From: Symbiotaphrina buchneri
Lineage: Eukaryota > Ascomycota > Symbiotaphrinales > Symbiotaphrinaceae
Direction: 5' to 3'
Length of the DNA: 64,000 nt
Assembly (NCBI GenBank): GCA_001599915.1
Contig: BCIG01000015.1
Coordinates: forward strand, 248,001 to 312,000
A program made the translations under genes and the position numbers. Under the pieces are notes generated by a model. The model was not told the DNA's origin, ran no database searches, and was given only the letters and a program-made list of their open reading frames with translations. Below are positions 1 through 51,102 of the stretch, piece by piece; within the stretch, counting starts at the first letter, position 1; every line of letters starts with the position of its first letter.

Positions 1-1327
1 GCAAAATGTTTTCGAGACGAGGATCTAAGGGCTGACAGACAGCCCGAGTTTACACAGGTGGTTCATTAATCCCTATTACAAAGTTTCTGGTACTGACCAA
101 GGCTTAGCTTGATCTTGAGATGTCCTTTGCGACCGGTGAAGATGTGATACAAACGATCGAAAGGCTCGTAAGGCGACTATGGGCCGATGCTTTAGGTATG
201 GATTTGCCGGTAGAAAAATTCCGTCGAATGCCTTACAAGGAGGCTATGGAAAAGTATGGTTCTGACAAGCCTGATTTGCGGTTTGACATGCAAGTGAGTC
301 ATTGAATGAGAGAAAAAGGCGACCCTGCAATAACACCCAAGCAGATACACAATATCGGGTACATGCTGCCCCAGGATCTAATCATGAACATTGGCCCTTT
401 GACGGACCCAATTGTGGAAGTGATGAAGCTCCAGCTTCCTGAAGCCACGCCGAAGGAAACCCAGCAGTTCATCACCTCTTTTATGCAATCTCATGAAGCA
501 GCACCTTTTCAGCAGAATCCAGAAGGCAAACCAGGAATATTCGTCGTGGATGCAGGAAAACCTCTTTCAGGGCTCTCGGCCTTTGGATTCGAGGCTGCGG
601 AACATCTTGAAGGGTTACTGGAGCTCGAGCATGGTGATATAGTCGTCCTCCAGGCCCGGAAGCGCGTACCCCTGACAGGCGGGTCCACTCCGCTGGGCAA
701 TCTCCGCCTGGCCTTGCATAGGTATGCTGTCGCACAAGGCATGATCGAGCCACCAGAAGGCTTTAGGTTTGTCTGGGTGGTCGATTTTCCGCTCTTCTCA
801 CCCACCAACGACACCGATCCTGGCCAGGGAGGTGCTGCGGGCATATCTTCCACGCATCATCCTTTTACTTCACCAAAATCAGCTGCGGACGTGGATCTGT
901 TGCTGTCTAGTCCATTGGAGGTGACCGGCGAGCACTACGACCTTGTTGTGAATGGTGTCGAGTTGGGTGGTGGCAGTCGACGTATCCACGATGCTCGAGT
1001 TCAAGAGTTCATTCTCAGGGATGTTTTGAAGGTAAGCATAAGCGATATTCATACCTTGCTGAATGGTTTCTTATCTCGTCTCAGATGAGCCCGGAACGTC
1101 TACAGGAGTTTTCACATCTTCTTGAGGTGCTTCGCGCAGGATGTCCACCTCATGCGGGGATTGCACTTGGATTTGATAGATTGGTGGCTGTTATGCTGGG
1201 AAAGGACTCAATCAGGGATGTCGTGGCCTTCCCGAAGAGCGGCAAGGGCGAAGATCTCTTGGTCAAAAGTCCGGGGCTTCTGAGCAGCGACATTCTTGAT
1301 ACGTATCATCTGAAGCTCAAGGAATGA
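1..1327 (+). CDS. msd1: Mitochondrial aspartate--tRNA ligase, 3' part
   Basis: Class II aminoacyl-tRNA synthetase that charges tRNA-Asp, most likely in mitochondria. The 5' part lies outside the window. Four exons read in phase: 1-57, 108-293, 345-1031 and 1085-1327, with GT-AG introns of 50, 51 and 53 bases. Exon 1 carries the motif 2 region (CFRDEDLRADRQPEF). Next come the KYGSDKPDLRF segment and the insertion domain found in bacterial and mitochondrial AspRS. The C-terminus has the ELGGGSRRIHD segment and motif 3 (GIALGFDRL), followed by SIRDVVAFPK. These features are typical of the bacterial-type enzyme and not of the cytosolic one. It runs convergently toward nudC. Confidence 0.93.
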
Positions 1328-1663
1328 TTGCCTTGTGGCGGGATAGATAGCGTAGTAGTCGGTCGGAAAGCGGACCCCGTCTCCAGGCTTAGTGAGTTCC
1401 ACCAAAATGGCCGTTTTGTCAGCATTTTGGCAACCAAAGATAGCATCAGCCTTCTTTCCCCCCCCCCCCCCCCCCTTCCCCGCCTGATCGGACTTATTCT
1501 CTACTCTAGATCCACTCCAGACCTGCAGTTACCATTTAGTAAGGATGAAGTGAATATTGGCTCAATTTGGCGTAGCATTCTCCAAGGGAAAATGCACAGG
1601 TTACTATGCATAGAGACCAGCGCTATGTAGGCGCCAACCTTCAACGTCGTAGCCCATGTCATT
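1328..1663. other. Spacer between convergent genes
   Basis: Shared 3' region of the aspartyl-tRNA synthetase and nudC genes. It holds a run of 18 C at 1458-1475 and no convincing gene. Confidence 0.6.
1458..1475. repeat. Poly-C homopolymer tract
   Basis: Eighteen consecutive C on the plus strand, set in a pyrimidine-rich stretch in the 3' flank of the AspRS gene. The true length may differ because homopolymers are error-prone in sequencing. Confidence 0.9.
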
Positions 1664-2422
1664 CTATCCGATCTTCGCTTTCGAAAAATCTAGGTCTGGC
1701 CGCTGCTCTTGAAACTTCCGGAGCATCTCCATCTTCTTTTCTTCATCGCTGGTGGGCTTGCCCATCTCCTTCTGTCTCTGATCATACATCATCTGTGGCC
1801 GAACATTAGCATGTAAAGGGGGAACATCCGCCAGCGGAATGAGATACCTTCTCGACCATGCTCTAACATCAACTGCACGTTAGCCACTTTTCCAAGAGAA
1901 AGACCTTGCTTGAGCGAGCGCGGGCCACTCACCCGTGTCTCCCCATCCAAGTCGCTCAACTTGCTATTCTCCGGCGTGATCTTGCTCGTATCGATCTTCG
2001 GCGCGCTAGTAACCACATGCGCCCACCACTCCATCTGGTTCTGCTTGGCTAGATTGAGCGCGATCTCCTTGCCGGACGACGTCGTCTCGAGGGTCCAGGT
2101 AGAGTCGTCAACCCGGATGGGTTTCGGAAGGTCGCCCTGCGTAGCAGCTTAATATCAACCGTTCTTCTAGAAAATGAACCTGTGTGACTCAAAGTACCTC
2201 GAGGATAGGTGCCTGCCCCTTGATTCCAACCTTCAACTTCGTCTTGCTTATCTCGACGACGAGATCCCGGCTCTTGAGGTTTGCGGGAATGGGCACCGTC
2301 ACGTCCACATCTTGTAAGGTCTGACGCCACTTGTACGGTAGAGCAGCTTGCTCTGCATCTTCGCGAGCCTTTGCTTCGGCTTCGACCTTTTCACGATCTT
2401 CGGGAGCTGGTGAGCCCGCCAT
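1664..2422 (-). CDS. nudC: Nuclear movement protein NudC
   Basis: CS-domain (p23-like) co-chaperone of the dynein/LIS1 nuclear migration pathway, cytoplasmic. Four exons in phase, 5' to 3': 2422-2198, 2136-1933, 1862-1848 and 1792-1664. They give 190 residues, close to the roughly 200 usual for fungal NudC. The CS domain begins at [18 protein letters not shown] (about residue 29), continues through [16 protein letters not shown] and the WTLE strand, and reaches NQMEWWAHV. The C-terminal tail [17 protein letters not shown] and the last residues [10 protein letters not shown] are NudC signatures. Exon 3 is a 15-base microexon encoding SMVEK, without which the conserved tail cannot be joined. 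The start is the first ATG of the open frame. Confidence 0.92.
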
Positions 2423-2694
2423 CCTGTTGAGGTGTTGTCTTCTGCAGATTTTGGAAAGGATGGAAGTTTCCAGGTTCCCGCGAGTTAAGTGTGGGGGAAT
2501 CTGGGCTTACCCGGCGCGAGCTAGCTTATCGATAAGAGATAGGGGCCATTTAGGGGCTCGGGGGGTTGCTTGGTTAATAACCGAAAATCCAGCCAACTAA
2601 TGGCTGGTTACTGGTAAATGTTCGAGATGTTGTATCCATTTGGATCCATGCCCTGCTAAATGATATATCCTTTTTACATACTGTGGGCCTCTTT

Positions 2695-4534
2695 TTACAA
2701 GTGAGAACCCTGTAATGGTTGGCCCATGCCGCCGAAAGTGACCATCTTCGTGATCATGTATTCTTCCATGCCCAGGTGAGAGCCTTCCCGACCGAAGCCA
2801 CTCCATTTTACTCCGCCGAAGCTGGCAATCGATTAGTTTGGAGGTAGTCTCGACAGGTGATGGTAGACTTACGGAGCAGCAGGGTCCGAGATCAGACCAG
2901 TGTTTACACCCACCATGCCCACTTCTAGCGCTTCAGCGACCCTGTAAATGCGCTGGACGTCTCGGCTGAAGAAGTACCCAGCCAGTCCCACTTCGGTAGC
3001 ATTCGCCAGTTTGACGACTTCGGCTTCATCCTGAAACTCGAAAAGGCCTGCCACAGGCCCAAAAGTCTCCTCGCGCGAAAGCTGCATGTTCGGCTTCATG
3101 TCCCTAATGACGGTCAACTGATAGAAGTTGCTGCCGAGTTCAGGCAGTTTCTGTCCTCCGTATATGACCTTTCCACCCTGGGATACCGCATCTTCCACAT
3201 GGCTGTGTACCTTGCTTACGGCGCGATCGTGGATGACTGGTCCATGAGTGACGCCCTTCTCAAAGCCATTGCCCACTTTGAACTCCTTCACCTTCTCGAC
3301 GAACTTGTTGGCAAACTCATCGTAAATACCCTTTTGCACGTAGATGCGGTTTGCACACACGCAGGTCTGACCGGATGACCGGAACTTGCTTGCTATGGCG
3401 CCCGCAACAGCGGTATCAATGTCGGCGTCATCAAAGACGATGAAGGGGGCATTCCCGCCAAGCTCGAATGACAGCTTCTTCAGAGTGTCGGCAGATTGCT
3501 TCATAAGCAGCTTCCCCACGTTGGTCGAGCCAGTAAATGAAACCTTGCGGATAACCGAACTCGAGGTGATCGTCTCGCCGACTTCGGCAGTGTTGTCCAG
3601 GGCTGTCACAACGTTGAACACACCCTTTGGAATACCAGCACGGGTAGCAAGCTCTGCCAGAGCTAGGGAGGTGAAGGGAGTTTCACCAGGAGTCTTGACA
3701 ACGACAGTGCAACCTGCAGCCAATGCCGGTCCCACCTTCCGAGTAATCATAGCTGCGGGAAAGTTCCACCTGCGAGTATACTGTCAGGCCGTCGGACCGA
3801 CTACTGCTGTGGGGCATCAGACTTACGGTGTTATCAGTCCGCAAACGCCAACAGGCTCTTTGATGGTCAAAACCCTGTTGCCAGCCACCGTGGCCGGAAT
3901 GGTCGCCCCGTATGCTCTGGGGGCTTCTTCGCTGAACCATTCGAAGAAGCCGGCGGCATACGAGACCTCGCCCGTAGCATCTGCCAGCGGCTTCCCATTT
4001 TCCCAGGTAATGATTTTGGCGAGATCTTCCGAATTATCCATCATCAGTTGATACCATTTGCGAAGCATGCGAGATCTCTCTCTCGCAGTTTTAGTACGGA
4101 AGGATGGAAACGCGGCTTGCGCTGCCGCAATGGCCTTTTCGGTGTCGGACTTGTCGAATTCCGGACATGTTCCGATGACCTTGTGTGTTGCAGGATCTAG
4201 GAATACGCATCAGCCAGCTCTAGGTCATTTCAAATGGTGGGCGCCGGACCTTTGACCTCAAATGTCTTGCCCGACTTTGCCGAAACCCATTCACCGTCGA
4301 CATAGGCCTGCTGTTTCAGCAGTGAGGGATCTTTGAGCTACAGGAGCTGTCAGCAGAGTAGTGACGAGGGATTTGCCCCGCAACTGGAGCGTGGATGTCC
4401 ATTGGGGAGCAACATACAGTTGGAGCAGGCATGGCGTAGGTCCTCGCTGCTATCCTTGGTAGGTTTGAAGATTGAAAGCGCGATTTGTAGGCGCGTGTAG
4501 CTGTAGAACGGAAGAGAGAGCAAGGACGCAACAT
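2695..4534 (-). CDS. uga2: Succinate-semialdehyde dehydrogenase (NAD(P)+)
   Basis: ALDH-superfamily enzyme oxidising succinate semialdehyde to succinate, the last step of the GABA shunt. Exons: 4534-4418, 4337-4250, 4196-3827, 3769-2873 and 2821-2695, all phases consistent, 532 residues. Visible motifs are [11 protein letters not shown] and KTPGETPF (cofactor binding), [11 protein letters not shown], the general-base FELGGNAPF and the nucleophile [11 protein letters not shown]. The C-terminus is [17 protein letters not shown]. The Arg/Ser-rich first 35 residues resemble a mitochondrial presequence and end before a second Met. A shorter cytosolic start at that Met is therefore possible. SSADH is favoured over general ALDH because of the overall GabD/Uga2-like pattern. 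That choice comes from memory of the family. Confidence 0.9.
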
Positions 4535-5236
4535 GACGATTGGGGGAAATTATGGTTAGACTGCCGTTGTGGAGCTGCTTGCCCTCTGGACGAGGAAAAG
4601 GCAATAAGGTACCGCGGGCAGCAGGATCTAATATGTCATCAATACCTTTACAGATAACCGCCGTGACCGGTTACTGCGTATTACCTACCAATGACAATGG
4701 ACGAGAGACAGGGTGGGTCACTTAGTCACCGACTCACTGATCGCTATCACTAGTCACCGGTCACACAGATTCCTACCGAGAGAGAGATTCTTATTCTTGT
4801 GCGAGTAAAGAGCCCGCGCGACTGAAGTGGAGTGGAGTGGAGAACGTCGGGACATTTGCTACCTTACCTTAGGTATTTGACCTTGGGTACCTAAGGTACC
4901 TTTAACTTTGAGGTACAGTGTATTAAATCGTACCTGGTACGAAGTACAGTACCTTCGGTAACGTATGACGACAGGTCGAACGGACGATAACGAAGTTAAT
5001 CCGCTTATCGGTGGCCATCTACCGGTCCTCTCCGCATCTAGGATAAGGTAAGGTAAGGTAAGGTAGGAAACATACCTAGGGTAGCAATGGAGATACTCAA
5101 CACCAACAAGCTCATTGGAAGGTAAGATAGGTAAGATGATTTAAGTTAAATACCTTAACGTAGCTAGCTACCTGTAAGCCCAAAAATAAGAACGAATCCA
5201 TTATGTATTTTTGTTGGTCGTTGTGCCGGACCACAT
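4535..5236. other. Spacer rich in GGTA/TACC words
   Basis: Holds the SSADH promoter side and the 3' end of the GH36 gene. It is full of short TACC/GGTA words, with a regular AAGGT pentanucleotide run near 5044-5067 and further ACCTAAGGTACC-type near-palindromes at 4860-4960. No gene is seen. Confidence 0.6.
5044..5067. repeat. (AAGGT)n pentanucleotide microsatellite
   Basis: About four head-to-tail copies of AAGGT on the plus strand. The same word recurs in several other spacers of this window. Confidence 0.85.
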
Positions 5237-8200
5237 CTATGGCTGAAGGAATATCTCAACTTGCACCTCGTTACTCCAACCACTGCTCAGTCCCATCTCT
5301 TCCCAGGCTTTCTGCACATTGATTTCCAGGATGTTGTCAACCCGGCTCCTCACCACAGTGTGCCTAGGAATGGGTCGGCCTAGGATCATCACCATGAAAT
5401 CATCGTCAATCGATCTATCAGCCATGTTTGAAACATACAAGCCTGGGGCAAGTTAGCGCACGAATCTTGGTTGATGGAAGCGGTCGTGTATTATCCTTAC
5501 CCAGCGTGCCCAGCGCCTTTAACGCTGTCCAGAAGCGGATGCGTCCGTTGTCGGCCGTGTATATGTCTGTGTTTATAATGGCAGCAGCCCCCGTCATCTT
5601 TCCAAGAAGCCCAAAGTTGGCAAGATGGATGGGAGCTTTCGCCGACTCCACTGTCACAACCGGGTGAGCGGACAATATCTCCCATCCTTTGGTGGGAACG
5701 TCAAGGTCCAGGAGTAATGTCTTGTCCCTTTGCGCCGACACCAGGCTGATCTCGCCACTGTTATGCGATCGAACAATGTACTCGCCGACTTCTGTCCCGG
5801 GAAATTCCCGGAGAGGTATCAATTCGCGCAGAGAGCTCTCTCCGACATTGAATATCCCGAGTATTGACGTGCCCGTCTCAGCGCGACCTGAGTACGTAGC
5901 AATCTTCAACAGCTTCTGCTCATGGTAAGCAGCATATGCCTCTGTCGTCCTACCGATCGCACTTGGCCGAAGAATCACAGTGTTCCCTCTTGGGGTTTGC
6001 GCTGTCATCTGCTGCACGAGGCTGTAATCATGCTTTCCAGGAACGTCCGTGATGTAGATTGGCCCTCCCGATATGCAGCGAGCAGCAGCATGGAACGATG
6101 AATATTCATGAGAAGTCTGAAACATGTCCCAGTCCGGCAACGCGTTCAAATGCTGAGTGAACAGAGAGTTGTGTGCGTTACAAAAAATGTGCCACGGATG
6201 TGAGGCGGGAATTTCTGGGAAAAAGTCTTCCAAGCTGTCAGTCGCTACGTGAAGAGAAACAATGGCGGAAGGCATACCGTCTGAATTGCGGACCATAATT
6301 CTCGGCTTGTTAGAAGGAAGGAGAGAATGGAAGAGGATTTGAGGAGCTTGCGACATGCCTTCAAGTAAAGTCAGCTCCAGTTACTTTCCGCGTTCTTGGG
6401 CAGGGTTATACATGAGATTGCCTTGACAGAAAAGTATCTCAGACTACTGATAGTCCAAGCATCCTGATACGCTTTGATCAGCCGACGCCTATCGTCTGCA
6501 TCTTCAAGGAGATCCACGTAGAACTGGACATCGGTTTTGACTGAATCAACTCCACACGAGGAAAGGAATCTGAAGGAGCGTCAGTGGTGTCTGCTTAGGG
6601 CATCTCTACCGATTACCTGTAGCAGTCGTCATAGAATCTGAATATATCGTCTGCATCAATTACGGTCATTGGTGTGCCCATGTGTTCATTGAAGCCTTCC
6701 TGTCGACGGACTTTGATAGTCTTGTACGTTTTTGCGAGTTTGCCGTTAGACGAGATCCCTCCCCAGTAACCCATCTACATTTGTGAGTGATCTGGCTTCT
6801 CATCTGGTTTGTACACACTTACAAGTGCATGCCACACGCCGATATGCTTAATATGCGGGTGTCTACTACGGATTTCCGAGATGGTATGCCTCAGCCCTTG
6901 GGGGAACCCTTCTTTGTTGGCTTCGAACTCGGTCCATCCTTTGGAGAATGGGGACTCCTTTCCTTCCTGACCGGCGTTCAGCATAACGCATCTGCAACCT
7001 AGTGGGATCAGGGCAAGCGACCCACCAGTGATTGCCAATTATCATCAATGATCAAATTCGAAACTGTGTGGTCAGTGAACGTTATGGTACAACTAGGCTG
7101 CTTCACTTACTCTTTATGCCAGATTTCTCTAGTTCACCCAGAGCATCGAGGATGCGGCTTTCAGATAGTTCTCTGCCTAGACCGTTCCATGTGCAATAAG
7201 TGAAGCCATCATACCAGTCCTCCGTCCATTCCGGCTTCACACCTTCACACAAGGTCTTCATCTCCACTTCTGCTTCTCCACTCAGGGCCTGTGCGCCCAT
7301 GACAAGCTTGCGTGCCTCGTAAACTGCCGCTGCCTTGGCTACTTCGAAAGTCTTTCCGACAGCTGCAACCACTCGTCCTGTACCCTCGTATTCTCCGTCG
7401 TTCTTCAGAGAAAGTACAACGTTGCCCTCATGATCGGATTTGAAAATCGTCAGAACATCGTCGATGCCACTGACGGCTAGTAGGACGAGGTGCAGGCCAT
7501 CCCACCTGAGGAAGGAACAGAGTATCCCATCCTTTGCCGCGGTAAATCGGTCCTTCCCATGCTCAGGAGAGAGCCAAGGGCTCCAGAGGCGGACGAGAGC
7601 GAACCAGCGAGTAAATGCTTTTGGTATACCCAGCTTTGTCAGGGTTATGCCAGACTTACGGCCTTTTGCGGGTTTCGCTGGTGCTGTGATATACCAGACA
7701 TTGGTCCCGCTGACTTGACTAGGCTTCTCCCTTACGCTCAGGGTTGAATCCAGCCGATCAATATAGAAGCCGAGGTCCTTGGAAGCAGCTGACGGCGCCT
7801 GGTAGCACAGTTCGCCGTCAGATTTGGAGTTGTGGTCATTGACCCATTTCCAATTGTCCTCTGGCCCGACGCGGAATTTCAATGTAAAACGGACTGGACC
7901 CATAGAATCTGGTTTTCCCGACAACTGCCCCTTGAAGAACCGTCGCTGCACATCTGGACGTGGTTTCTCATCGACCGAAAGCTATGCACGAATGAATACG
8001 GCGAAAAGAGCTGAAATTTCATAGGATCTTTACCAGATGAGGATCTTTTTCCATCCATTTCAGGGGTAACCCTTCCCATTCTGCCTGTTGCCGGAGGTTG
8101 TGCCACAAGACAACTTCCCACGGCTGTGCTTCGGGGGATACATCGCACTCGAGTAGAACGGTGAATGTCACCTTGAAGCAGTTCAGAACGAGGCCAAGAT

Positions 8201-10355: not shown

Positions 10356-11459
10356 TCAGTCCACGTCGTCATCGTTCGTCTCCTGACGCTTTTGTCCAGC
10401 CTTGTCGACCTGCATATTTCTAAATGCTTCATCCTCCTTGTCCAGGCTCTGCTTCGGAATCAAGGTGAACAGAATGACAAGATAGACCTCCTTGGTCTCT
10501 TTGTTCCTGAGAACATATCTAAGTGTGTGCGAACTTTAGCAAACACCGCAATTGCTCGTAAGCCAAACATGTAGGAAGGGCCATGAGAGGGTAGACCTAC
10601 CGTAGAGGTTGGCCGTCCCAGTATCTGATCACAGGCAGTGAAAAGCCAGGGAGTTTCAATGAGAATTCTGTTAATAAGATTAGCCAATAGCTCGGTTGTG
10701 AGTGTGAGCGAGCCCACCGTTGAAATCGAGATACGGGTTGTAGAAGTCGGCATAGAAGACCCTTCCTTCTTCGAATTCAAACGCTTCTCTCTTCTTCTTG
10801 TCTAAAAAGTATTTCTTCCGCTGTGCAGCATCATCCGGCAACCCTTTTGCCTTTCGAACCTGCTCGCCATCACCTTCTGCACCTTCTTCGTACACCACTT
10901 CTCCTTTGACCTCAGGCAGTCCGCCTTTGCTACCAAGCCGAAAGATGTTCAAAGAGCTCAATAGCGGACCGTAGAGATAAGGCTCATCGGCTTGCACGTC
11001 ACCCTCCAAACCTGGATCGACGGCCCATTTCACGATTTTGAAGGCAGTGTTGAAACCCGGCGGCAGTCGATCGCGAATCGGATGATCAAAGTCGTTACCA
11101 AACACAAGTGCATCTCCAGATACTGATCTCGAGAGCCGAAATGAGAAGGCGATACTATACATGTCACTCGCATGTTTTGGGTGGGAGAAGTACGGGCTGG
11201 ACGGTGGTGAGTCTTTCGGAAGTCCTGCAGGGAAGAGAGCGACATAAGCAGGAGGACTTCTTGGGACAATGGGTGCATCCATGAGGTATGGCGCCCGCTC
11301 ACCTCTATAGTTTTGTATCCGGACATTGACCTTGGCTTCGAGGTGTTTGCTGGAGATATGAACAGGCTCGTGTCTATTGACCGCGACGAGTTGATGACTC
11401 GCAAGGTCATAATCAGGCCCGGCTGTTACGCGGAGCACGAAGTCGTCTGATACAGGCAT
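10356..11459 (-). CDS. DUF1769 / UPF0590 family protein
   Basis: Conserved fungal protein of unknown function. Exons: 11459-10718, 10667-10601 and 10518-10356, 323 residues. Recognisable family blocks are VLRVTAGPDYDL near the start, SIAFSFRLSRSV, VFGNDFDHPIRDRLPPGFN, VKWAVDPGLEGDV, EPYLYGPLLSS and the C-terminal LPGFSLPVIRYWDGQPLRYV. The last of these is assembled across both introns. I chose the ATG at 11459 because the conserved region begins a few residues later. The frame stays open upstream to 11621, so a longer N-terminus cannot be excluded. No membrane segment or signal peptide is visible. Confidence 0.85.
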
Positions 11460-11934
11460 TCTGGACGGGTCGGGACAGACTTTGAGTGGTGAAATTGAAA
11501 AGCAAAGCTGACGGCCGACAAATCCAAGCAGAGCTGTGAACGACACCGAATTGTTCTCATGGAATTCAATCTTGAGAACGGATATCTGGCAGTCGGAGCT
11601 GGAGAGCCTTGTAGTGCGCAAAAGAACAAGGGCTCATGGATGAGGGGAATTTATGACGGTGATCGGCGTTTGGCCCGATACTGCAAAATATAAATTTTGG
11701 TCGCAGCCATCGTACGGGACGTCATCGACACTCGGCAACCTGCCCAGGCTCCACACACTCTTGGCGAAGTGAGGCAGGAAGGCGTACAGGCGGCAGCTAT
11801 CATTTTGCTATTAAATTTCATTTATGTATGCTCTGTGCGCCTTGTCTAGAAGCTTTCATTCCACGGCATAGGTGATATGCCAATTAGCTGTCCATGAGAG
11901 ACATGGATCAGTGCGATGTCTGTGGCTTCTAGTT
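11460..11934. other. Spacer, promoter side of the DUF1769 gene
   Basis: 475 bases between tandem minus-strand genes. No gene or repeat is seen. Confidence 0.5.
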
Positions 11935-13424
11935 CTAGATATCCCCAGCCTTTTGTCCCGCATGTAGAAGTTCGTTGATATCCACTCGTTGGTAGTAATT
12001 AACATGCCCAAACTCCTCCCAATAATGTGCAAGCCGGTTCTGCGAGATAATAATCAATTGCGCGGGAATGTATTTGTCTGCAGCTCGCACACTCCGTGTC
12101 AGCAAAATGACTGTAACATATTCCAGTAAAGGACTCCCGTGAGAGGCTCACCTTCCCGGAAATCGTGGGCTGCGATGTGGCCCCAGGACCTGACCACCCT
12201 TGCGCCCCGAAAAGGATGTTCTTGCGCTATGCGCAACAGGCCCGAGTCTCCCAGCTCTGGTGCATAGAAAGTCGTCTCTCCCCGCGGAACATTGGGATCC
12301 CCAGTGAGCTTCACGGCTTGCAAGCTCCCGCGATAGGGACGATTTCCTTCCGCTGGCCGTCCCGCAGCGGGATTGTTAGCCACTACTTGGCGCTGATCCC
12401 CTGTCGTGTCAGGAGAGTCCATCTCGCGGATGTCTGGCTTGCTGGCCGGACAAGTCAAAGGTTCATCTTCATCTGGTTGGAGCACCACCAGAAACTCGCA
12501 TCCATGGCCAGAGTAGTCCCCTACCCAGATACCCCTAAATGGTTTCTCCGCAGTTGGGGTATAGGCGACTTCCGGTAACGTTGTATATGTAGATATCCGT
12601 TCATGAAGGCCCCGGTCAGACCATTCACCCTGATGACTGAACTGCATCCATCTGCGGATGCGGAAGGCTTGTTCGCTCATTTCCTCTAAAGCATCCGGCT
12701 TGTGCCCGGTACTTCTGAATCCATCTTGGCTCTCGTTTCGCACCCGATGTCTGGCTGGCAAATTTCTGGACGGCCACGCAGCTGCGTTGGGCTTATCTAG
12801 GTGAGCTGGAAGCGGCCTCGTAAGGGCTAACGTCGAATACAAGCCATCATCGGAGTGAGTGGTATGCATATAAAGCTCCTGCTGCAGTCGGGTCTCTCCT
12901 CCAAAACTTTGGTGTGCGGCGCTGCCCATTTCGATGTTAACATCTGCCTCCTCGAGATGAAGGTGAACGTTTGGATGGAATTTATGAATGATGATCCTGG
13001 GATCCCAGTGCCATTGCTCGAAAGCGAGGTTGCTCCTTTCGGCCAGGACTCTATACGCCTCGATGCAAGCACGCTGGGGATTATATCGCGCAAGGATCAG
13101 TTTCCCCGTATGGAGAGTATCTGAAAACCATAACTTGTGTTTTGGCAGGAACCAGTATGGATGGTAAGCGACGTATAATTCTCTGAAGGACTTGGCCGGT
13201 CCGGGGGACTGTAGTTGGACATGCGGGACGTGGTCCTGCACAAATTCATGCCACAGACTCTCATCCGAGGCGTGCGCATGCAAGAGTCGACAAACGCGGG
13301 ATGCACAGGCCAGATCGATGGGGCGAAGGTATCCACAGATTTGATTCAGCAGTTCGGGTGGCAGCGAGAGCAGAGAGGCGTCTGAAAGGCGGACGGGCTC
13401 GTCCTCAGAGGCGGCCGAGGCCAT
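11935..13424 (-). CDS. F-box protein, FBXO31-like
   Basis: Likely substrate receptor of an SCF ubiquitin ligase. Exons 13424-12152 and 12077-11935 give 471 residues. The F-box lies at about residues 17-62 (LLSLPPELLNQICGYLRPID, then CRLLHAHASDESLW). The C-terminal half contains KPFRGIWVGDYSGHGCEFL, matching the domain shared by FBXO31-type proteins. It ends in ITGDPNVPRGE-like and YIPAQLIIISQNRLAHYW blocks. Splicing the 74-base intron replaces an early stop with this conserved C-terminus. The middle (about residues 220-260) is low in conservation and probably disordered. Substrate and partners cannot be inferred. Confidence 0.85.
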
Positions 13425-17632: not shown

Positions 17633-19690
17633 TCAACTATCATCGCCTGACTCATCATCAAACCCCTCGAACCCGTCGCTGGTCTCCGCAGCGCTATCAC
17701 CTTCCTCCGGCTGAGACGGCGAGCTTGCGGCAGGCTCTTCAGACCCCACCTCACTACCCGCTCGTTTTCTCTTCTTGCCCATCTCTCCTAACCGGCCATC
17801 ACGGCCTTCAACACCATCGGTCTCTTGACCATCGACTTCAGGTGGAGGCGTGTACCATGGTATCTTGCCTCTCATGAAATCATTCAATACCATCTTCGCA
17901 ACCCCATCCACGTCCGCCTCCCCTCCCTTCAACAATCTTCCACCCTTTCTAGCAAGAAGTTCTAGGAATTCCAGGGCATTGTTGTATCCCTTGATCTCAT
18001 AAGTTCGTTCCACATGTTGTGGTTTACATTTGTCGAGGACTGCTGCAATGTACTGCTCCGGATTTTGTACATTCTCCACCCGTACAACTCCTCTCAGGAG
18101 AATGTCCTGCTCGGTGTCATTCTGATTCGGAGGCACCACACCCGGACAGTCGATAAGGTAGATCCTCTTCATTAGAGTGATGTATTGCCAGACTTTGGTC
18201 TCGCCAGGTATGGGAGCAACAGTGCAGACCTTCTTCTTTCGCAGTGTATTGATAATGGACGACTTGCCAGTGTTCGGATAGCCAATAAAGCCAACCGAGA
18301 TTTGTTTACGGTCCGAATGGAGGGAGGAAAATTGCCGAAGGAGCTGAATGAGTGAACCTTTCCCGAAAGAATTTGTGATTGACGCGTGGAACGCTAGAGT
18401 CGGATACTCCTTAGAGAGATAACGAACCCATGCCGCCTGAGGGAGATGTCAGCATCTTTTCAAAAGCTTGCCCGGCAGCTGTACGACTGTATGAATCATT
18501 ACTAAGAGAACGACTATAGGCCGCCGGAAGGCGGAGGTCGTTCTCAACTCAAACAAAACATCGCCAAACCCTTTACGACTAGTTTCTCAAGACGAGATAC
18601 AGTCTACTTGCAGCCATGACGGCAGCAAGCGGCGGGTTTAGCATCAATGTACCAAAGTTGTAACAGGCATTCTCCCATTGTAGGTTGCACTTGAAGCAGG
18701 GAGGAGCCTTGACTTAACAATGGACCAGTTGCACAATGTATACGGCAGCAGAAGAATAGAAAGGACAAACTCACAGCTACCCTTGTAGGCACCAAATCGC
18801 ATTTGTTCAGCACAAAAATCAGGTGTTTGTGAGGGGCTTCCTCCTTGATGTACTTTTCAACACTCCTACACCTCGTTCCTAACGGGTCGCGCGCATCCAG
18901 TACATGGATGACTACATCTGAAGAGTCGATAACCTTGTACAGCTCATTCCAGATTCTCTTGCTCTGTCCCTTGCTGAATATCGGTTCCCGTGCTGTGGTC
19001 AGTTCGCCGTCATCTGCCATAGCTGTCTCACCAGGTTCTTCGTTGGATTTTCCGCTGAGAAGTCTGGCTTGCTCCAATCGCTCTAAGTAATCGTCGTGCA
19101 TTTTTTCTGTCTCCCCAACCAAGTCTTCTAAAGAGGCGGCTCCAATCTTAACTCTCTTTCTTTGAGCCTTGGGACCGAACGTCTCTGCAAAAGGGGCAGC
19201 TTCCACTGCCATTTTCGCTTCATGTTGCTTCAAACCGTTCTTGCCGGGCGCATCCCGTATCAGACTCATCGGTAACTTGTTCGTCTTAAGAAGAACCTGA
19301 TACGGATCTGATGCCTTTTCGGCCATTGCCTCACGAAACGAGGTCAAATCCTCCTGACTAATGACACGTGTGTTGGTAAACCATTTTCGATTGGGCTCGA
19401 TACGTGCATTGGGGACCTCGCGGGATTGGAAGGATGCGGCTTTCGTGATTTTCCCCTCAGCGTTCCGTTGAGCTTTGCCATCCTTGAACATATTGAGGGT
19501 CTTGACCTTCTTCGCACTCCTGCACAACGTGTTCAGCCGTCAGCCACGGCCTCCGAGTAACCATCTTCGAAGTCCTAATCAAGGAAACGCACCTGTAGAA
19601 GTTTTCGCCCTTGGTCTTGACATTTCCCAGCCCATCTCCAACTTTCCCCTGTCTCTCCTTCCGGTTGGCTTCTTTCTTGTAGGACCCCAT
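17633..19690 (-). CDS. nug2: Nucleolar GTPase Nug2/Nog2
   Basis: GTPase that docks on pre-60S ribosomal particles and is needed for late nuclear maturation and export of the large subunit. Exons: 19690-19593, 19519-18775 and 18436-17633, 548 residues. The N-terminus [20 protein letters not shown] and [11 protein letters not shown] are Nog2 signatures. The GTPase motifs occur in circularly permuted order: G4 NKCDLVP, then G1 [10 protein letters not shown], then G3 DCPGV, as expected for this YlqF/Nog2 class. The C-terminal 80 residues are acidic and basic low-complexity sequence. Intron 1 is ordinary (73 bases). Intron 2 is 338 bases and hosts an H/ACA snoRNA. It is divergent from mS26. Confidence 0.95.
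18485..18728 (-). ncRNA. snR191: Intronic H/ACA snoRNA, snR191-like
   Basis: Lies inside NUG2 intron 2. 5' hairpin: lower stem GTT/AAC plus CCA/TGG, and upper stem AGGC (18709-18706) with GCCT (18668-18665), continued by CTCCC/GGGAG. Its pocket strands AGTCA (18714-18710 region) and GTTAC (18664-18660) pair with GUAAC-U-A-UGACU of 25S helix 69. An ACATTG box (18650-18645) follows 14 bases after the stem. 3' hairpin: stem GAGAACGAC/GTCGTTCTC topped by CCGCC/GGCGG, with pocket words GAGT and TAGT matching the neighbouring uridine. ACA (18490-18488) lies 15 bases after the stem, directly after the basal ATG/CAT pair. A third hairpin (18629-18607) lies between them. Yeast snR191 guides the same two pseudouridines and sits in the NOG2 intron. 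Ends are estimates. Confidence 0.82.
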
Positions 19691-49027: not shown

Positions 49028-50131
49028 TCAGCCTGCTCCTCCAGCACCATTGGTGTCCATTGGTTGTAGACCAGCTCCGTCAGGCACTGGTTGTCTCCGT
49101 TTCCTAATAGGCGCTTTCTTTCGTTGTTCTACTGCCCCTTGCTGTGCCATAGCGGTGTCCTCATCGTCATCTTCGCCATCATCATTGTCGTCCTCGTTCA
49201 GCTCCCGAAATCTGCTTGCTTCATCCAGCTCATTGAGATTCGTCGGCTTCATCCTCAGCCATTTCATCCTAGGACCCGAAATTGCACGTTCTGATACTCG
49301 GAAGCCGTAGATGCGGGGTTCATATATCTTGCCCACGCCCAGACCAGGAGCAAGGTTTAATGCAGGGACTCCGTTGATCACAAACGGCTGGTTCGGCAAC
49401 GGTACGTCTGAACCGGCACCGGCCACTGGTACGGTCGAAAGTGATGAATTTCGGCTCTTATCAGTTGCAGGAGACAGAGGGTCATGTCTTACGCCAATAT
49501 CCATCTCCGGAAATGTCATGAAAAATAGACTGCCGAATGTCGTACCAAAAAAAGCGCCATCGACGGCCTGGAATCTGCTGTTAGGTGGCGTATAGACATC
49601 CAGGCAGCTTGGGCAGAACAACTTGACGGTCTCTTGACCGGGTGTATCACTTAGCCCAACTGGAAGAACTTTGCAACCATTGCAGTTCACCCGTGGGCAA
49701 ACGCCGAAATGCTGTAGCTCATACTTCTCCGCCATTTGTTGTATCCCGGGCCTTGATGTGATATACCGCTGGTGAATTAGGCCGTAGAGGAGCTCTGCCG
49801 AGCTTTCAATGACACTCAAGTCGCTAGATACCCGCATATGCCTGCGGTCACTTGCCCTTCGGTAGCCCAGGGGTTTGTCATCACCAAAAGCGTCATCATC
49901 ATCCTCTTCTTCCTCCTCCTCCTCTTCCTCTTCGTCCTCGTCCTCTTCTTCCGGTTCCACGTCCAATATCATCTCCAAAGCCTCTTTATACATGGGCACC
50001 TGTGACTGGAGCCCTGTGAGATTGAAGTCATCCTCGATGAAATCCTCTGAAACCTCTGCGAAGTACTCGTGCCCTAGCAAGGAGCAGAAGGACGCTATCC
50101 ACGACTCCGGTGCAGGAGATGAGGACGACAT
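49028..50131 (-). CDS. ckb1: Casein kinase II regulatory (beta) subunit
   Basis: Regulatory subunit of the CK2 holoenzyme. Single exon, 367 residues, from ATG at 50131 (MSSSSPAPESWIASFCSLLGHEYFAEV). The frame continues open upstream. CK2 beta landmarks are WIASFCSLLGHEYF, EDDFNLTGL, the dimerising zinc site CPRVNCNGCKVLP with FCPSCLDVY, and GTTFGSLFFMTFPEM. Compared with the metazoan protein (about 215 residues) it has an acidic Glu/Asp run of roughly 25 residues after EALEMILD, a linker before the conserved YGFRVSERA segment, and a long acidic and basic C-terminal tail. Filamentous fungi commonly have such extensions in Ckb1. Confidence 0.94.
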   Translation of the reverse strand: MSSSSPAPESWIASFCSLLGHEYFAEVSEDFIEDDFNLTGLQSQVPMYKEALEMILDVEPEEEDEDEEEEEEEEEEDDDDAFGDDKPLGYRRASDRRHMRVSSDLSVIESSAELLYGLIHQRYITSRPGIQQMAEKYELQHFGVCPRVNCNGCKVLPVGLSDTPGQETVKLFCPSCLDVYTPPNSRFQAVDGAFFGTTFGSLFFMTFPEMDIGVRHDPLSPATDKSRNSSLSTVPVAGAGSDVPLPNQPFVINGVPALNLAPGLGVGKIYEPRIYGFRVSERAISGPRMKWLRMKPTNLNELDEASRFRELNEDDNDDGEDDDEDTAMAQQGAVEQRKKAPIRKRRQPVPDGAGLQPMDTNGAGGAG

Positions 50132-51102
50132 ATCGCTAGATGTCGAGCCTTCTAATAAATCTCCTCCCGACAAATGCAACGATGGTGGATCTTCCAGCTT
50201 TGCTGTCAAGTTCAACACCGGATCCGGAGAAATAGCGATTGTGGTCGTTATGTGAAAGTACGATGGTTTAGGCGGCCTTATTGGGTTGATGAATCCTCCA
50301 TACGCATGCTTGAGTGGTGCAAGGAGGATTGGCGGGATTGAAGTGCGTCAATGGCCGTAAAACATACACGTGAAGGAGACTAAGGATGATGATGAGGTAT
50401 CAGACGAGCATCCCAAGATCGGACGACGCTAGTGATGATACAGTCGCGACTGATGAATAACGAGTAGAGGTGAGGTGAACCGATTTGCTCAATTTCACAG
50501 CGCTTGTTAGGGGAGATAGGCCGGTGAGATCCTACGTTCAAGATTAGGATCTTTCGACAATCTGAGCGCACGCGCGGAAGATGCGCAGGTCGATATCTAG
50601 GGGACCTACTCTACCGCGACAACAGCTGAAGGAAGTGCTGAGAAGCCAGTATTACTTCGCAGCAAGGTGAATGAACGTCCAGATGCCGTACGATGGGGTG
50701 GATCGAGATCTGGTCGCGGGCAGAGCCAGCGCTGGTCGATGAGATACTCCAACGAAGGGCACGGGAAGTGTGGTTTCCTTCCTGCACTAGTGTGCGTGGC
50801 TTGGCATACAGCCCGCCCTAGAACGCGATAAGGCAAGTGTCGCCTAAATGAAGCCACAGTGGCTTGTGGCTGGTTTGGAGCCCCTTAAACAGCAACCATA
50901 CTTCAAGGACTGGAGTCGACTCCTGAAACACTAGTGCCCAAGGTTTGTACCTTATCAACAGAGATCACGACAGCTTAAATTACTTTCTTTAATTTTAAAG
51001 AGGATGATAAGTCTTGAGAATGCCCTGGAACATCACGGCCTTTGAGAGGTTGCGGGGTAGCGCGTAATGATAATCATGTCTGGATCGATACGTCCATGTT
51101 TA
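50132..51102. other. Spacer with CKB1 promoter
   Basis: 971 bases, no recognisable gene. An ATGATGATGA word near 50383 looked like a snoRNA C box but has no suitable partner box. Confidence 0.45.

What the first reader, a model, noticed from the sequence alone, without database searches (positions are those of the whole stretch)
18437..18774. snR191-type H/ACA snoRNA preserved in the NUG2/NOG2 intron
Seen: NUG2 intron 2 is 338 bases, far above the 47-90 typical here, and on the sense (minus) strand it folds into two pocketed hairpins plus a third between them. Pocket 1 has AGTCA and GTTAC, giving 5+5 pairs around the first uridine of CUAUG in helix 69 of 25S rRNA. An ACATTG (H-box-like) lies 14 bases after its stem. 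Pocket 2 has GAGT and TAGT, 4+4 pairs around the second uridine, with ACA 15 bases after its stem. Both hairpins share the same basal design (three pairs, a TT/TT mismatch, then more pairs). Established: yeast snR191 guides these two uridines (25S 2258 and 2260) and lies in the NOG2 intron. Inference: host gene and guide RNA have stayed together across Ascomycota.
Basis: partly seen in the sequence, partly recalled or inferred. Interest (0 to 1): 0.85.

Follow-up and report, generated by a model that had tools for sequence, protein, structure and literature searches.

The report
snR191 pseudouridine-guide snoRNA in NOG2 intron
A long intron in a fungal ribosome-assembly gene carries a small guide RNA of a known family that most likely directs two conserved chemical modifications of ribosomal RNA; the family and its home in this intron are already described, so this is a sound but ordinary find.

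Summary
The second intron of NOG2 (NUG2), 18774-18437 minus, is 338 nt. Rfam's snR191 model (RF01263) matches 18725-18485 minus over its full length, 47.7 bits against a gathering cut-off of 46, E 1.1e-7 for the whole window, the only family above cut-off. Guide arms, spacing to the boxes and splice signals are as described. The "third hairpin" is really a three-way junction with two arms, which Rfam's consensus also has. A relative on a probably mis-binned fungal contig (L001) has an intron at the same codon boundary, the same guide arms, and 12 of 67 base pairs changed on both sides while still pairing. Mechanism: excised intron, trimmed to an H/ACA snoRNP, pseudouridylating the equivalents of yeast 25S U2258 and U2260; expression and modification were not tested. 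The host-guide association is already in print for fungi beyond Ascomycota (PMC8476143), and an intronic snR191 cDNA is reported from Trichophyton (PMC3890542). Low interest; the one open point is the conserved middle domain of unknown function.

The parts
18437..18774 (-). NOG2 intron 2, 338 nt, GTGAGT...CAG, phase 0 after codon 281
   Evidence: read; the same site holds a 329-nt intron in L001
18485..18725 (-). snR191 H/ACA snoRNA (mature ends approximate)
   Evidence: Rfam RF01263, 47.7 bits, gathering 46, model 1-273 of 273
18652..18723 (-). guide hairpin 1 (pocket for U2258 equivalent)
   Evidence: alignment; folds
18710..18714 (-). 5' guide arm 1, AGUCA
   Evidence: identical in L001
18660..18664 (-). 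3' guide arm 1, GUUAC
   Evidence: identical in L001
18645..18650 (-). H box, ACAUUG (departs from ANANNA at the last base)
   Evidence: aligned to AGAUUA of the Rfam consensus; AGAUUG in L001
18563..18642 (-). middle three-way-junction domain, 9-bp closing stem
   Evidence: z -4.48 for 18560-18645; Rfam consensus has the same layout; 8 of 28 pairs two-sided changes against L001, 5 broken
18606..18630 (-). middle arm M1
   Evidence: fold, pairs listed
18577..18604 (-). middle arm M2, loop GUCUU at 18593-18589
   Evidence: fold, pairs listed; loop identical in L001
18491..18561 (-). guide hairpin 2 (pocket for U2260 equivalent)
   Evidence: alignment; z -4.08 for 18485-18563
18547..18550 (-). 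5' guide arm 2, GAGU
   Evidence: identical in L001
18501..18504 (-). 3' guide arm 2, UAGU
   Evidence: identical in L001
18488..18490 (-). ACA box, 3 nt before the end of the Rfam match
   Evidence: identical in L001
18448..18452 (-). branch-site-like CTGAC
   Evidence: that this is a branch-site consensus is recalled
19593..19690 (-). NOG2 exon 1
18775..19519 (-). NOG2 exon 2 (NGP1NT domain)
17633..18436 (-). NOG2 exon 3 (GTPase domain, to the stop codon)

Best explanation
It is the fungal H/ACA snoRNA snR191, carried in a NOG2 intron at a conserved position. After splicing, the intron is debranched and trimmed to an RNA of about 241-245 nt that binds the H/ACA proteins. Hairpin 1 places the uridine equivalent to yeast 25S U2258 in the active site, hairpin 2 the one equivalent to U2260, and both become pseudouridine in helix 69, at an intersubunit bridge. 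Shown: sequence, family match, guide arms, same intron site in one relative, compensating changes. Inferred: expression, processing, snoRNP assembly, modification.
For: Full-length Rfam hit above gathering. Against the Rfam consensus letters, of 77 consensus pairs 29 are unchanged, 4 changed on one side, 24 on both sides with pairing kept, 6 broken, 14 gapped. A relative (L001, NOG2 76% identical over 551 positions) has an intron at the same VA|AAW boundary, an snR191 match of 43.0 bits (E 2e-7) and identical guide arms; of 67 pairs 38 are unchanged, 9 one-sided, 12 two-sided, 8 broken. Yeast: snR191 is listed for 25S pseudouridines 2258 and 2260 (table in PMC8307265, passage); removing the NOG2 intron caused a growth defect without changing NOG2 mRNA or protein (PMC10667330, passages). 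Trichophyton: cDNA of intronic snR191 (PMC3890542, passages).
Against: The score is only just above gathering here and below it in L001 (43.0 against 46). The H box departs from ANANNA at its last base in both. Pocket 2 has only 4+4 pairs, and with G-U pairs allowed longer matches to this and other helix 69 uridines exist with arms outside the two pockets. The free MFE fold of hairpin 2 does not show the pocket, and the full-length MFE fold of L001 is not the canonical one. The 25S of this fungus was not available; the helix 69 sequence was recalled.
Confidence: 0.96

Rival explanations
1. A decayed snR191 copy: the intron keeps the relic, while a functional copy elsewhere in the genome does the work.
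For: snR191 lies outside NOG2 in some yeasts; the Rfam score is near the cut-off; the rest of the genome could not be searched.
Against: All four guide arms, the ACA box and, but for one pair, the basal stems are the same as in L001, and two-sided changes keep pairs. A relic would not be expected to show this.
Confidence: 0.03
2. A structured intron that acts mainly in cis on NOG2 splicing or as a stable intron under stress; the snoRNA role is secondary.
For: The flanks of the snoRNA within the intron can pair (-25.5 kcal/mol; 5 of 500 shuffles as good; L001 -11.1, 17 of 500). The yeast NOG2 intron is called a 'stable' intron (PMC10667330 passages).
Against: The flanks align poorly between the two fungi, while the guides are identical. 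In yeast, NOG2 mRNA and protein did not differ without the intron.
Confidence: 0.05
3. Chance fold in a long intron.
For: Hairpin 1 alone is not unusually stable (z -1.42).
Against: E 1.1e-7 over the window and all families; both guide pockets together in 0 of 20,000 shuffles; an snR191 match at the same site in L001.
Confidence: 0.005

Closest known systems
snR191 of Saccharomyces cerevisiae / Rfam RF01263
   Same: Host NOG2 intron; order hairpin 1, H box, three-way junction, hairpin 2, ACA; guide arms GUCA/GUUAC and GAGU/UAGU in the consensus.
   Different: 241 nt match against 273 model positions; 14 of 77 consensus pairs fall in gaps, 6 of them in the base of M1 on one side; H box ends in G.
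H/ACA snoRNAs in NOG2 introns of other fungi (Lim et al. 2021, PMC8476143; passages)
   Same: Same host gene, and a conserved NOG2 intron position reported across fungi.
   Different: Unidentified species here; their alignments (from Canzler et al. 2018, not held) were not at hand, so sequences and the exact intron position could not be compared.
Trichophyton rubrum Trnc_4006 (PMC3890542; passages)
   Same: Intronic, assigned to RF01263, 251-nt cDNA from a filamentous fungus.
   Different: Its listed targets (18S 935, 25S 1239, 25S 2245) are predictions given in that paper; the host gene is not stated in the passage seen.

Membership tests
snR191 (RF01263) | Covariance-model score at or above gathering | tested here: met
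   47.7 against 46, positions 1-273 of 273
snR191 (RF01263) | Guide arms for 25S U2258 and U2260 | tested here: met
   5+5 and 4+4 pairs against a recalled helix 69 sequence; positions from PMC8307265
snR191 (RF01263) | Lies in the NOG2 intron at the conserved position | tested here: inconclusive
   Host is Nog2 by PDB and Pfam and the boundary is the same in L001: met as far as tested; the position in yeast or in the published set was not compared
H/ACA snoRNA | Two pocketed hairpins, pocket about 14-16 nt from the box | tested here: met
   14 nt for both; pockets by the Rfam alignment, not by the free MFE fold of hairpin 2; the 14-16 rule is recalled
H/ACA snoRNA | ACA box 3 nt from the 3' end | tested here: inconclusive
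   ACA followed by 3 nt at the end of the Rfam match; the true 3' end is not mapped
H/ACA snoRNA | H box ANANNA in the hinge | tested here: inconclusive
   ACAUUG here, AGAUUG in L001, aligned to consensus AGAUUA; strict ANANNA occurs only at 18585 and 18460 in the intron
H/ACA snoRNA | Stable RNA bound by Cbf5 (dyskerin), Nop10, Gar1 and Nhp2 | not testable with these tools
   needs RNA from the organism
snR191 (RF01263) | Pseudouridine present at the two target positions | not testable with these tools
   needs rRNA from the organism

The most novel reading that the evidence does not exclude
The middle three-way junction, which sits between the H box and hairpin 2 where H/ACA RNAs usually have a short hinge (recalled), is a functional module of its own rather than a spacer, for instance a docking site for a protein or RNA that recognises the GUCUU loop of arm M2, and may give snR191 a role beyond its two pseudouridines. 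Its layout is shared by the Rfam consensus and two further, unidentified fungi, with 8 of 28 pairs changed on both sides and 5 broken between those two.
Probability: 0.3. Interest if true: 0.5.

Novelty: new member of a known kind. Interest (0 to 1): 0.2.

Why it matters
It adds one more well-supported case of a ribosome-assembly gene and an rRNA guide RNA staying together, a pattern already published for fungi. The remaining open point is why snR191 keeps a large structured domain between its two guide hairpins; that can be tested in yeast.

Tried and rejected
Own-genome search for a second copy or the 25S gene: no genome is held. NOG2 exon 3 in viral contigs: 3 stretches matched a pattern, none encodes a relative. 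Helix 69 DNA in viral contigs: 0 exact matches. NOG2 exon 3 in genome contigs: 27 stretches matched, 8 loci encode relatives; I examined only L001 (90% identity) and left the other 7 (best segments 26-57% identity), judging them prokaryotic GTPases from the listing alone. The idea that M1 and M2 share a C-GUNNU-G pentaloop (GUCAU and GUCUU here) was dropped: the fold gives M1 of L001 the loop CUCG; only the M2 loop GUCUU is the same in both. A first count of pairs against L001 lost 2 M1 pairs through a coordinate filter (65 pairs); the corrected count is 67 pairs, with the same 12 two-sided and 8 broken. Two other Rfam matches touching the intron (Ref68, 15.4 bits against 44, E 0.42; sR1, 11.6 against 45, E 1.4) were taken as chance. 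ARAGORN found no tRNA gene in the window. A paper on structural RNAs in fungi (PMC8216456) holds none of five terms tried, snR191 and NOG2 among them.

Full report
What is there. Reading the minus strand and splicing by GT-AG sites gives a NOG2 protein of 548 residues. Intron 1 has 73 nt and intron 2 has 338 nt (18774-18437), placed after codon 281 in phase 0. The protein is Nog2: for exon 3 the best solved relatives are nucleolar GTP-binding protein 2 chains, 8pv1 with E 1.4e-114, and 3jct with E 1.6e-107; exon 2 has the NGP1NT domain. The species was not identified; that it is a fungus rests on these gene matches and on the snoRNA.

The RNA. Rfam finds one family above gathering in the whole window, snR191 (RF01263), at 18725-18485 minus, 47.7 bits against 46, over positions 1-273 of 273, E 1.1e-7. 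For 18400-18820 alone the E-value is 7.1e-10, and the next best family has E 0.42. The dinucleotide-shuffle z-score of 18728-18485 is -4.60, 0 of 200 shuffles as stable. By parts: middle domain -4.48 (0 of 200), hairpin 2 -4.08 (0 of 200), hairpin 1 only -1.42 (18 of 200).

Guides. AGUCA (18714-18710) with GUUAC (18664-18660) pairs 5+5 around the first U of CUAUG; GAGU (18550-18547) with UAGU (18504-18501) pairs 4+4 around the second. The helix 69 sequence was recalled, not retrieved; it fits the published modified positions 2256, 2258, 2260, 2264 and 2266 (table in PMC8307265, passage). From each 3' arm to its box is 14 nt. In 20,000 shuffles the first arrangement occurred once, the second 37 times, both together never. 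Against this: with G-U pairs allowed, pairings of 12 with two other helix 69 uridines and of 9 with the second target uridine exist with arms outside the two pockets, and the pocketed fold of hairpin 2 is 2.4 kcal/mol less stable than its free MFE fold. An H/ACA snoRNP would be expected to impose the pocket (recalled, not tested).

Departures. The H box reads ACAUUG, not ANANNA; the relative has AGAUUG and the Rfam consensus AGAUUA.

Compensating changes. Against the Rfam consensus letters, 24 of 77 pairs changed on both sides and still pair, 4 on one side, 29 unchanged, 6 broken, 14 gapped. This alignment was fitted to the model's structure and leans towards it, and a consensus is not a sequence. 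A separate check came from a scan of prokaryote genome contigs: 8 loci encoded relatives of exon 3, and one, L001 (NYXK01000235.1, labelled as a Deltaproteobacteria MAG), is 90% identical over query residues 1-199. Read with two introns, its Nog2 is 76% identical to the window's over 551 positions, and a 329-nt intron lies at the same VA|AAW boundary, with an snR191 match of 43.0 bits, E 2e-7, below the gathering score. The four guide arms, the ACA and the M2 loop GUCUU are identical. On a plain MAFFT alignment, of 67 pairs 38 are unchanged, 9 one-sided, 12 two-sided and 8 broken. With the 3' partners slid by 1 to 3 columns either way the two-sided count is 0 to 3, but this control is weak, because 39 to 44 of the 67 slid pairs do not pair in the window to begin with and the structure was taken from the window itself. 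In the middle domain 13 of 28 pairs are unchanged, 2 one-sided, 8 two-sided and 5 broken; 3 of the 5 broken are in its 9-pair closing stem. Of aligned bases, 165 of 239 are identical in the snoRNA, 22 of 35 in the 5' flank and 17 of 29 in the 3' flank, the flanks being largely gapped.

Flanks. The intron sequences either side of the snoRNA can pair (-25.5 kcal/mol, 5 of 500 shuffles as good), with high pair probability in the whole intron, reaching into the 5' splice site and the branch region. In L001 the pairing is weaker (-11.1, 17 of 500). Such a stem could bring the splice sites or snoRNA ends together; this is inference.

Literature, in open-licence PubMed Central only. Searches: 'snR191 NOG2' (6 papers), 'snR191 snoRNA fungi' (7), 'ACA snoRNA, Neurospora crassa, pseudouridylation, intron' (11), four snoRNA terms (420, 40 listed), helix 69 (160, 12 listed) and 'snR191' (18). 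I opened 9 papers, each by passages only. Lim et al. 2021 (PMC8476143) report that RPL7B and NOG2 introns keep their positions in eight intron-poor fungi, both holding snoRNAs, and that 72% of fungal species keep the NOG2 intron position. The general claim of the finding is therefore in print and wider than Ascomycota. Trichophyton rubrum has an intronic snR191 cDNA of 251 nt (PMC3890542). A 2016 paper reports snR191 orthologs in Saccharomycotina, while giving another snoRNA for Pezizomycotina too (PMC4937481). Exceptions to host fidelity: Candida parapsilosis and C. orthopsilosis (PMC5033589), Naumovozyma dairenensis and Kazachstania africana (PMC4202332). In yeast, removing the NOG2 intron caused a growth defect at unchanged NOG2 mRNA and protein (PMC10667330). 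The Neurospora snoRNA paper does not hold the term snR191 in its main text (PMC2780460). One paper describes a multi-branch loop in a model of yeast snR191 and reports PIP2 binding (PMC12389098). In the passages I saw, none of these papers gives the middle domain a function; I made no search for that alone.

Verdict. The finding is right and well read from sequence alone. It is a member of a known family in its known host; what remains open is the role of the conserved middle domain.

Noticed in passing
L001 (NYXK01000235.1, 107,036-base contig, locus 1-6597): A contig of a MAG labelled Deltaproteobacteria (isolate CPC1) in the prokaryote collection carries a NOG2 gene with spliceosomal-type introns and an snR191 match: most likely a mis-binned fungal contig. 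The rest of the contig was not examined.
   Followed up: partly
18731-18774 and 18437-18484, minus strand: The two intron flanks of the snoRNA are complementary and can form a long terminal stem that covers part of the 5' splice site and the branch region; weaker in L001.
   Followed up: partly
18589-18593, minus strand: The apical loop GUCUU of middle arm M2 is identical in L001 and close to gUUUu of the Rfam consensus.
   Followed up: partly
5418-6356 minus; 12099-13424 minus; 10680-11621 minus; 49028-50218 minus: Other window genes by Pfam, from 19 of the 32 ORFs of at least 170 aa: raffinose synthase/Sip1 family, F-box protein with cyclin D1 binding domain, Duc1, casein kinase II regulatory subunit.
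   Followed up: no
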